Assembly: GCF_043290135.1 (NCBI RefSeq)
Contig: NC_134707.1
Coordinates: forward strand, 67,509,906-67,573,905
Source: Rhipicephalus microplus
Taxonomy: Eukaryota; Arthropoda; Arachnida; Ixodida; Ixodidae
DNA length: 64,000 bases
Direction of reading: 5' to 3'
A model generated the notes under the pieces. That model worked only from the letters and a program-made list of their open reading frames with translations. It was not told the origin of the DNA and did no database searches. The translations under genes and the position numbers were made by a program. Each line of letters opens with the position of its first letter. Positions within the stretch are counted from its first letter, which is position 1. This document shows positions 34,575 to 47,940 of this stretch, piece after piece.

Positions 34575-34702
34575 TTATTCTGCGTCTGGAAAGCAATCTT
34601 TTGTGAATACGTCCCGTACCGGTAGACCGGCAGCGTACTCATTGAACTTCTCCAGACAACTGGTTGGAACATTCTCAGAATCTTTTGCCCATAGTTCGTA
34701 AC
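34575..34702 (-). CDS. Lipocalin exon 5 (C-terminus and stop)
   Basis: 128 bases after an ATTCCAG acceptor. The first two bases complete a Gly codon begun in exon 4, then [15 protein letters not shown] and [18 protein letters not shown], ending CFPDAE and TAA (34577-34575). It carries two of the conserved cysteines. Confidence 0.92.
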
Positions 34703-46700: not shown

Positions 46701-47940
46701 ATAAACTACAGTACTCATGTTTGCTAGTGCCACTTCATGGCACAAAGGTGAAAAATTCAGTATAGGGGAAATATATCTCCGGCTTTATATGAATCATCTC
46801 CTGAAGGAAGTTATATGAGGCATTTAAAACGTTAGAGACGTGCTGGCTGCATTGTCAAGCGTGATTTGCAAGAACATCTAGTCAGCCGTTGACAAATATT
46901 TCATTTCTTATGTTAGTGTCATTTGAGCAGTCTGGTTTTCATTATATTGAAGCAAAGTAAATTACTGTTACAGTAAATTTCTAATTGGTGCAAACGGAAG
47001 GAGGAAAACGCAGCACTCGTGTGAAAAACTTCTGTTCCCGGAAGCACAAGACGACGTCACTGCCTACGCCTCAAGTCATAATTCGTCTGCGTTCTAGACC
47101 ATGGATTTCCAGAAACGGACTGGCAAGCACTGCTCAGATGCAATTGTTCAGCAAAACAACTTTTGCAGCAGACGCCTTGGCGTAAGACGAGACTTCAGGC
47201 GAAGGCGCACTGACGCTAATGGTCCGCGAACATTTCTACAGAAGCGTAAATTACAGTGTAACATCCATGCGGCCAATGAGATGTGTTGTTAAGGCATCAT
47301 TATATTTTTGTGTCAGTGTATAACACTGTAAAACTAAAAAAAATTACTGTAATCATATAGAAATAGAAATCATTATGAGTATTACAGGATACATTATTCT
47401 GGCCTTTCACCGGATGGTATTGTTGTGCTAAATAAAAAACTGAACAAGCTTACTATTACGCCATCAGTGCATAAAATACATTTCTCTGCTTTTAGTACAC
47501 ATGTACACAGTTTACACTAAATATTCAACTCAAATCACACAGTGGAAGTCGCCAACGAAAAACGTTTGATCCTTGTGGAAGTTGTCGGAAATAGACGGGC
47601 CTTGCCTGCGCCTTACTCAGCTCAATTTTAACTCTACTGATGATTGTTTGAAAACTTTCTGACAGCACAGAATAAACGGTGTGTGGATTTTTGGTGCTGT
47701 CATGAGTTATAATATGTCGTTACAATGAAAATAACATTCACTGGCCTTTACGCTCACACAAAACAAAATTATTTTTCTCATATGTTTCTCGTGCAGAAAT
47801 ATCGCAACCATTGCGAATCATTTTACCTTCAATGCATCTTGGTGTGCTCCATTTGCCGCTTCATCTGCCCAAACTGGCTTATTGCCCTTAACTTGGCTTA
47901 GAGCTAAAACAAATGCAAAAGAGAGTAAAAGAAGCTTCAT
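34575..47940 (-). CDS. Secreted HBP-type lipocalin, complete five-exon gene
   Basis: Tick salivary-type lipocalin, 193 residues, joined on the minus strand from 47940-47827, 45918-45746, 37556-37477, 36143-36057 and 34702-34575 (114+173+80+87+128 = 582 bases, stop TAA included). All introns are GT-AG and the phases (0, 2, 1, 1) join without a frameshift. Residues 1-19 are a signal peptide ([10 protein letters not shown]...SQVKG). The mature protein begins [15 protein letters not shown]. Further family hallmarks are [19 protein letters not shown] (exon 2), [12 protein letters not shown] (exon 3), [20 protein letters not shown] (exon 4) and [18 protein letters not shown] (exon 5). Cysteines lie at 43, 67, 138, 167 and 188; four fit the two disulfides of this family and C43 is extra. 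One N-glycosylation sequon, NLT, is at 126-128. HBP family members scavenge histamine at the feeding site; ligand binding of this protein is inferred, not shown. Confidence 0.93.
34703..36056 (-). other. Lipocalin intron 4
   Basis: 1,354 bases, GTACGT donor and ATTCCAG acceptor. AT-rich. An 80-codon open frame at 35011-35250 has no recognisable domain and is not spliced into the gene. No transposon was recognised. Confidence 0.8.
36057..36143 (-). CDS. Lipocalin exon 4
   Basis: 87 bases after a CTTGTAG acceptor, ending at a GTACGT donor. It encodes the strand with [20 protein letters not shown], including the conserved DDNC cysteine (C138) and the NLT sequon. Confidence 0.92.
36144..37476 (-). 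other. Lipocalin intron 3
   Basis: 1,333 bases, GTAAGA donor and CTTGTAG acceptor. AT-rich, with no element or exon recognised inside. Confidence 0.8.
37477..37556 (-). CDS. Lipocalin exon 3
   Basis: 80 bases after an ATCTTTCAG acceptor, ending at a GTAAGA donor. The first base completes a Tyr codon (TA from exon 2 plus C). It encodes [20 protein letters not shown] and ITYVTE. Confidence 0.92.
37890..38120 (+). mobile_element. TA-tailed SINE-like repeat, copy A
   Basis: A B-box-like GGTTCGATTCC at 37957-37967 suggests a tRNA-derived head. The 3' part (about 38018-38080, with ATTGGTTCTATTAACTTCCC and CTATACATTCCTTGG) is repeated in inverse orientation at 42402-42505. Both copies end at TGTTAGATCTSA and pass directly into TA and CA microsatellites. 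The 5' boundary is approximate. Confidence 0.6.
38108..38205. repeat. CA/TA microsatellite, left half
   Basis: A short CA run (38108-38120) followed by uninterrupted TA to 38205, where the LTR element begins. With 40764-40864 it forms one TA tract split by the insertion. Open frames with Tyr-Ile runs here are translated microsatellite. Confidence 0.95.
38206..38329 (+). repeat. 5' LTR of non-autonomous element
   Basis: 124 bp, same length as 40641-40764, with 8 substitutions and no indel by eye. Confidence 0.88.
39190..39560 (+). pseudogene. gag-like remnant of non-autonomous LTR element
   Basis: It reads [20 protein letters not shown], then [20 protein letters not shown] and [20 protein letters not shown], stop. 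Downstream in the same frame comes [10 protein letters not shown]. The pattern (FDG, then Trp-rich helices) is that of a Ty3/gypsy-type Gag capsid region. The stop at about 39400 and lack of pol indicate decay. Confidence 0.6.
40641..40764 (+). repeat. 3' LTR of non-autonomous element
   Basis: 124 bp, partner of 38206-38329. No clear polypurine tract precedes it. Confidence 0.88.
40764..40864. repeat. TA microsatellite, right half
   Basis: About 100 bp of uninterrupted AT repeat after the 3' LTR, continuing the tract broken at 38205. Confidence 0.95.
40865..42058. other. Intron 2 interior, nothing recognised
   Basis: AT-rich, non-coding within the lipocalin intron. No conserved block or element end was recognised. 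Confidence 0.5.
42059..42142. repeat. CA then TA microsatellite
   Basis: AC repeat (42059-42079), an imperfect stretch, then TA repeat (about 42096-42142). In minus orientation this is the tail of the SINE-like repeat copy B, the same arrangement as at 38108-38205. Confidence 0.92.
42153..42401 (-). mobile_element. tRNA-derived SINE (Ruka-like)
   Basis: Same family as 8396-8639, minus orientation, with the head ending in the CCGCGGCGGGG block at about 42384-42394. It is flanked by TGAGATTTAA (42143-42152) and TGAGATCTAA (42402-42411), a 10-bp duplication with one mismatch. It inserted between the TA tail and body of the TA-tailed repeat. Confidence 0.85.
42402..42505 (-). mobile_element. TA-tailed SINE-like repeat, copy B (3' part)
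   Basis: The reverse complement matches about 37985-38080, including the stretch around ACATTGGTTCTAATAACTTC. Its 3' end ATCTCA continues on the far side of the inserted Ruka-like SINE into the TA tract at 42142-42096. Confidence 0.65.
42600..44480. other. GTAAC-rich, partly GC-rich segment, unidentified
   Basis: The segment contains two clusters of GTAACG/CGTTAC motifs (42815-42980 and 44338-44460) around a CpG-rich middle (43220-43740) with a 126-codon open frame at 43223-43603 (minus). No domain was recognised. Near 42650-42670 a C-rich run follows GGGGGCTCAGCC. It could be a decayed DNA transposon with repeated subterminal motifs, but clear terminal inverted repeats were not found. Confidence 0.3.
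44671..44928 (-). pseudogene. Possible LINE C-terminal Cys motif remnant
   Basis: Minus-strand frame with [20 protein letters not shown] and [16 protein letters not shown]. Several tick LINE families end ORF2 in a CPxCG-type motif after such a helix. There is no other LINE sequence around it, so this is weak. Confidence 0.25.
45080..45300 (+). mobile_element. Old, diverged Ruka-like SINE
   Basis: It follows the SINE consensus of 8396-8639 with many changes: GCCGCCACAGTAGTCTAGTG at the head, TGCTGACCCGCAGGTCGCG, a mutated B box (CGTTTAAACCTAG), a body with AACCCACGTGGTC, and an A/T end near ACATAAATTATAT. No clear target-site duplication remains, so it is older than the other copies. Confidence 0.7.
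45746..45918 (-). CDS. Lipocalin exon 2
   Basis: 173 bases after a CATTTCAG acceptor, ending in TA before a GTAAGT donor. It encodes [29 protein letters not shown] and the acidic stretch [16 protein letters not shown]. It contains the family-conserved C67 and an extra cysteine, C43. Confidence 0.93.
45919..47826 (-). other. Lipocalin intron 1
   Basis: 1,908 bases, GTAAAA donor and CATTTCAG acceptor. The part from 46985 to 47826 is homologous to 5884-6738 of the left paralogue. The rest is AT-rich with a small hairpin (AATTCTC/GAGAATT near 46500) and no recognised element. The homologue of its left part lies beyond LINE copy 1, off the window. Confidence 0.8.
47827..47940 (-). CDS. Lipocalin exon 1 (signal peptide)
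   Basis: 38 codons from the ATG at 47940-47938 to an AAG before GTAAAA. It gives a 19-residue signal peptide with a hydrophobic core and the mature start [19 protein letters not shown]. It has the same length and junction as 6739-6852. Confidence 0.94.

What the first reader, a model, noticed from the sequence alone, without database searches (positions are those of the whole stretch)
34575..47940. Complete five-exon histamine-binding-type lipocalin hidden among transposons
None of the five exons makes a long open frame, so ORF-based annotation misses the gene. Splicing 47940-47827, 45918-45746, 37556-37477, 36143-36057 and 34702-34575 gives one uninterrupted 193-residue secreted protein. All introns are GT-AG, the phases match, and family motifs fall in the expected order. 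A TATA box and an AATAAA lie at suitable distances.
Basis: partly seen in the sequence, partly recalled or inferred. Interest (0 to 1): 0.9.

Follow-up and report, generated by a model that had tools for sequence, protein, structure and literature searches.

The report
Tick histamine-binding lipocalin gene, HBP1-like
The stretch holds an ordinary, apparently intact five-exon tick gene for a salivary-type histamine-binding protein that sits among mobile elements, with the first exon of a related gene nearby; one of its two expected binding pockets looks dismantled.

Summary
All five exons lie at the stated minus-strand coordinates, all four introns are GT-AG, phases fit, and no exon has an in-frame stop before the last codon. 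Searched one at a time, exons 2-5 match only Pfam His_binding (PF02098), in profile order, and all five best match solved tick HBP2. Exon lengths place each piece in HBP2 register with no net indel at any junction. It is an HBP1/2-type histamine-binding lipocalin, about 60% identical to HBP2, with four family cysteines and most high-affinity-site residues kept.

Beyond the finding: both low-affinity-site acids (24, 120) are replaced, and position 108 carries the Leu reported to lower affinity in Ra-HBP1, so weaker or single-site histamine binding, or another ligand, is likely. A ~3 kb block with a second intact exon 1 lies 41 kb away on the same strand, suggesting a tandem family.

This is a new member of a well-known kind; several exons and repeat-rich surroundings are expected in ticks. 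Species, expression and ligand are untested.

The parts
47999..48006 (-). TATAAATA, putative core promoter, 66 nt before the ATG
   Evidence: read; the paralogous copy has TATTAATA at the same place, 56 of 67 bases identical between TATA and ATG
47827..47940 (-). exon 1: start, 19-residue signal region, mature residues 1-19
   Evidence: no stop, donor GTAAAA; residues 20-38 match HBP2 1-19, best E 1.3e-4
45746..45918 (-). exon 2: mature residues 20-76 plus 2 bases of a split codon
   Evidence: Pfam PF02098 E 1.7e-10; HBP2 21-74, best E 3.6e-14
37477..37556 (-). exon 3: mature residues 78-103 plus parts of split codons at both ends
   Evidence: PF02098 E 0.0087; HBP2 80-103, best E 3.7e-5
36057..36143 (-). 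exon 4: mature residues 105-132 plus parts of split codons at both ends
   Evidence: PF02098 E 0.0096; HBP2 105-131, E 1.7e-5
34575..34702 (-). exon 5: part of a split codon, mature residues 134-174 and stop codon
   Evidence: PF02098 E 0.034; HBP2 134-171, E 5.5e-11
34491..34496 (-). AATAAA, putative polyadenylation signal 79 nt after the stop
   Evidence: read
6739..6852 (-). paralogous exon 1 with intact start and GTAAAA donor, first exon of a second gene whose other exons were not found in the window
   Evidence: tblastn 81.6% over 38 of 38 residues; sequence; 101 of 114 bases identical
5882..9098 (.). duplicated block, copy of 46988-49944 (79-81% identical, two aligned pieces)
46988..49944 (.). 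duplicated block holding exon 1, promoter and part of intron 1

Best explanation
An apparently functional, tandemly duplicated tick gene for a secreted histamine-binding lipocalin of the female HBP1/HBP2 type. Shown: gene structure, family, hydrophobic N-terminus ahead of the mature start, the four family cysteines (48, 119, 148, 169) and most of the high-affinity-site residues. Inferred: it is secreted in saliva, folds as a lipocalin barrel and holds histamine in the upper (H) pocket, so that the amine cannot reach host receptors. Because position 108 is Leu (as reported for Ra-HBP1) and both acids of the lower (L) pocket are replaced (24 Cys, 120 Tyr), I expect weaker, single-site histamine binding, or another ligand in the lower pocket.
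For: Exon pieces 2-5 hit only PF02098, in order. All five pieces match HBP2 best, 98 of 162 aligned residues identical (my count from the printed match lines: 1qft for exons 2, 4 and 5, the variant chains 3gaq and 3g7x for exons 1 and 3). No net indel across any of four junctions. Site residues. Site definitions: PMC5008119 section 6; PMC2254393 passages and section 26. Ra-HBP1 Phe-to-Leu lowers affinity; Ra-HBP1 affinity weak (PMC6617849 passages). Tick lipocalins have conserved intron position and phase (PMC3695081 passages). Paralogous exon 1: 13 differences in 114 bases, 5/1/7 by codon position, no gaps, against 78.7-84.0% identity in flank, leader and intron.
Against: No expression data. 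The one search run on the large protein collection, with exon 2 alone, found nothing (two further searches were not used). The four changed L-site positions of six and 108L leave it open that histamine is not its ligand. An odd fifth cysteine (24) has no evident partner.
Confidence: 0.85

Rival explanations
1. A histamine-binding-type lipocalin that has moved to another ligand: the lower pocket, without acids and with His, Cys, Ile and Tyr in place of Ser, Asp, Phe and Asp, holds a more hydrophobic or aromatic ligand, as in relatives that bind serotonin, leukotrienes or sterols.
For: L-site positions 20, 24, 98 and 120 all changed, 100 and 137 kept. Related D. reticulatus SHBP binds histamine and serotonin in different sites (PMC8548845 passages). 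LIR2, with both L-site acids missing, did not bind histamine in an assay, though it also differs in the H site.
Against: H-site residues 39, 42 and 110 (and acids 82 and 135, by recall) are kept, which points to retained amine binding in H. The Asp proposed as a monoamine marker, 120, is absent, which speaks against serotonin in L.
Confidence: 0.3
2. A recently silenced gene (pseudogene) with intact exons.
For: No transcript evidence; long intron 2 (8,189 nt) with repeats; neighbouring duplicate.
Against: No stop or splice-site loss in any of five exons; no net indel against HBP2 from mature residue 1 to 171; TATA and AATAAA in place.
Confidence: 0.08
3. Exons of two or more different lipocalin genes wrongly put together.
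For: There is a second exon 1 on the same strand and families of this kind are duplicated.
Against: Each of exons 2-5 has only itself as a significant match in the window (best other tblastn E 0.085). Order, strand, phase and register agree.
Confidence: 0.05

Closest known systems
Rhipicephalus appendiculatus female-specific HBP2 (PDB 1qft, 1qfv; variants 3g7x, 3gaq)
   Same: Same family, same register over mature residues 1-171, about 60% identity (98 of 162 aligned), same four disulfide cysteines, Asp39, Trp42, Asp110, Tyr100, Trp137.
   Different: Phe108 is Leu; L-site Ser20, Asp24, Phe98 and Asp120 are His, Cys, Ile and Tyr; one extra cysteine; a sequon at 107. The printed alignments show Arg at 24 in 3g7x and 3gaq.
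R. appendiculatus HBP1
   Same: Reported to carry Leu at the same H-site position, per PMC2254393 section 26 (I mapped its alignment positions 154/156 to 108/110).
   Different: Sequence not available here; overall identity and L-site residues not compared. Papers disagree on its affinity.
Dermacentor reticulatus SHBP
   Same: Related lipocalin with two amine sites (PMC8548845 passages).
   Different: Binds serotonin in one of the two; the present L pocket has no acid at the marker position 120. No sequence comparison made.

Membership tests
Tick histamine-binding lipocalin family (Pfam PF02098) | profile match along the whole domain | tested here: met
   exon pieces 2-5 cover profile 11-150 of 150 with small gaps at junctions; exon 2 alone exceeds the gathering score, the other three do not on their own, and exon 1 has no hit
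Tick histamine-binding lipocalin family (Pfam PF02098) | four conserved disulfide cysteines (48-169, 119-148; pairing recalled) | tested here: met
   Cys at 48, 119, 148, 169
Tick histamine-binding lipocalin family (Pfam PF02098) | conserved exon-intron pattern of tick lipocalins | tested here: inconclusive
   five exons, phases 0,2,1,1; PMC3695081 states that position and phase are conserved and assigns sequences to exons 2, 4 and 5 of a relative, but the actual HBP2 positions and phases were not readable
Tick histamine-binding lipocalin family (Pfam PF02098) | secretion signal | tested here: inconclusive
   19 residues, mostly hydrophobic by eye, before the residue aligned to mature position 1; no signal-peptide program was run
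HBP2-type two-site histamine binder | H-site residues Asp39, Trp42, Phe108, Asp110 | tested here: not met
   three of four kept; 108 is Leu (definition)
HBP2-type two-site histamine binder | L-site residues Ser20, Asp24, Phe98, Tyr100, Asp120, Trp137 | tested here: not met
   two of six kept, both acids lost (definition)
HBP2-type two-site histamine binder | measured histamine binding | not testable with these tools
   needs purified protein

The most novel reading that the evidence does not exclude
A natural HBP1/2-type lipocalin that has dismantled its low-affinity amine pocket and gained a free cysteine beside it (position 24), so that it acts as a single-site histamine binder, as a dimer linked through that cysteine, or as a binder of a different second ligand.
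Probability: 0.45. Interest if true: 0.35.

Novelty: new member of a known kind. Interest (0 to 1): 0.22.

Why it matters
It is one more gene of a large family that ticks use against host inflammation. It shows that an exon-by-exon reading against a structural relative can support a gene model where open-frame methods see nothing, and it gives a promoter and paralog context for such a gene. PMC7396615 (passages) reports that about 50% of predicted genomic sequences for salivary proteins were missed or wrong in anopheline mosquitoes, so checked models of this kind are useful. The substitutions in the lower pocket make a simple, testable prediction on ligand stoichiometry.

Tried and rejected
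The genome search for PF02098 in the window's own assembly did not complete in seven tries, the same request each time, so copy number and species were not obtained. PMC2441560 (a paper on biogenic amine-binding proteins of soft ticks, title seen in the reference list) is not held. None of the 14 papers listed holds 'D24R'. The search for intron structure listed 10 of 18 papers; passages on exons or introns were looked at in five papers in all (PMC3695081, PMC5622192, PMC5008119, PMC2254393, PMC7396615), and none gave the HBP2 intron coordinates. Considered and rejected: pseudogene, mixed exons, chance. No fold was predicted because it would need the joined protein.

Full report
Check of the gene model. 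I read the DNA at each exon edge and computed lengths, phases and stops. The five stated exons have 114, 173, 80, 87 and 128 bases; the running length modulo 3 is 0, 2, 1, 1, 0; every intron starts with GT and ends with AG; the only in-frame stop is the last codon. Introns are 1,908, 8,189, 1,333 and 1,354 bases (from the coordinates). The open frames around the exons are 46 to 80 codons, so an open-frame scan indeed misses the gene. TATAAATA and AATAAA are present at suitable distances.

Identity. I searched each exon translation apart. Pfam gives PF02098, tick histamine-binding protein, for four of five pieces and nothing else for any piece, in the order 11-61, 67-91, 97-121, 125-150 of a 150-position profile. 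Only exon 2 passes the family's gathering score alone; the other three are short and score 14.7-16.6 bits against 21.2. All five pieces have HBP2 chains as best hits among solved structures; the few other chains listed up to E 10 are weak (0.15, 0.26, 1.4). That HBP2 is from R. appendiculatus is stated in PMC8548845. Counting identical residues in the printed match lines gives, for exons 1-5, 16 of 19, 29 of 54, 16 of 24, 15 of 27 and 22 of 38, together 98 of 162; for exons 1 and 3 the lines printed are those of the variant chains.

A test of the junctions. Exon 1 sets the numbering (its residue 20 is mature residue 1). The exon lengths then predict where exons 2-5 should fall on HBP2, and all eight end points agree with the alignments. 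This excludes a net gain or loss of residues at any of the four junctions. It does not check each splice edge alone: equal and opposite shifts of donor and acceptor would pass.

What it should do. PMC5008119 (section 6 read) names the H-site contacts Asp39, Trp42, Phe108, Asp110 and the L-site contacts Ser20, Asp24, Phe98, Tyr100, Asp120, Trp137 of HBP2. PMC2254393 (passages and section 26) says that H holds four acids and L two; that loss of the L acids in LIR2 argued against binding there; that LIR2, which also differs in H, did not bind histamine in an assay; and that in Ra-HBP1 a Phe-to-Leu change at the H site lowers affinity. In the window gene, H keeps 39, 42 and 110 but has Leu at 108; L keeps 100 and 137 but has His20, Cys24, Ile98 and Tyr120. 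Glu82 and Glu135, which I recall as the other two H-site acids, are kept. PMC6617849 (passages) calls Ra-HBP1 weak in histamine affinity; against this, PMC8957863 (passages) equates HBP1 with Votucalis/EV131 and gives it a high-affinity and a second site, while PMC6617849 equates EV-131 with HBP2. On the residues, the gene resembles an HBP1-type, probably weaker binder with no working amine site below. The five mature cysteines are 24, 48, 119, 148 and 169; the last four are the family's two bridges (pairing recalled), and 24 has no evident partner.

Neighbourhood. A tblastn of the exon pieces over the window finds one more significant match: a second exon 1 at 6852-6739 on the same strand, 81.6% identical over 38 residues. 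It lies in a block of about 3 kb, 5882-9098, that copies 46988-49944 at 79-81%, with a SINE-like copy between the two aligned pieces on the left. Within the block, exon 1 is 88.6% identical (101 of 114, no gaps), the region from TATA to ATG 83.6%, the 5' flank 84.0%, intron 1 82.9% and 78.7%: mild conservation of the exon. Its differences by codon position are 5, 1 and 7; the number is small. Exons 2-5 of that second gene were not found in the window; repeats shared with the LINE-type element at 50-55 kb (575-5829) occupy its intron side. Distant relatives would be missed by this method.

Mobile elements. Two open frames at 28148-29593 and 29569-33102 (plus strand) match gag, and protease, reverse transcriptase, RNase H and integrase. 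Three frames between 50292 and 53762 (minus strand) match endonuclease, reverse transcriptase and RNase H; five of the ten frames given to that call had no match, among them three in intron 2. Related copies of the LINE-type element recur across the window. The two tRNA-Ser hits are heads of a repeat of about 240 bases found also at 42156 and 19822. PMC3160391 (passages) says that the tick SINE Ruka could fold like a serine tRNA in R. appendiculatus, and gives about 70% repetitive DNA for R. microplus. So a gene among repeats is the rule there. That, with HBP2 as nearest solved relative, suggests a metastriate tick, perhaps Rhipicephalus; the species was not determined, and Ruka itself was not compared.

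Known or new. [quoted passage not shown] PMC7396615 (passages) counts 3,689 lipocalin sequences in one collection, 1,050 with at least 80% coverage of this Pfam domain. The gene is therefore, at most, a new member of a well-known kind; whether this very gene is already in a sialome could not be tested.

Noticed in passing
6739-6852, block 5882-9098: Second lipocalin exon 1, intact, in a segmental duplicate of the first gene's 5' region, same strand, about 41 kb away.
   Followed up: yes
8395-8635, 42156-42396, 56835-57078, 19822-20074: Repeats with a tRNA-Ser(GCT)-like head at two of them by ARAGORN, probably SINEs of the Ruka type (not compared); the two tRNA calls are therefore probably not tRNA genes.
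   Followed up: partly
28148-33102: Gypsy-type element with two long overlapping open frames (gag; protease-RT-RNase H-integrase), 1.5 kb from the lipocalin stop.
   Followed up: partly
50292-53762 and copies near 575, 11574, 20700, 60535, inverted near 57958: LINE-type element with endonuclease, RT and RNase H domains; several diverged copies in one window (domains scanned in the 50-53 kb copy only).
   Followed up: partly
38035-40645: Plus-strand open frames of 277, 204 and 227 codons in intron 2, without a Pfam match at E 0.01.
   Followed up: partly
36058-36141 (mature residue 107): A potential N-glycosylation sequon beside the H-site position 108.
   Followed up: no
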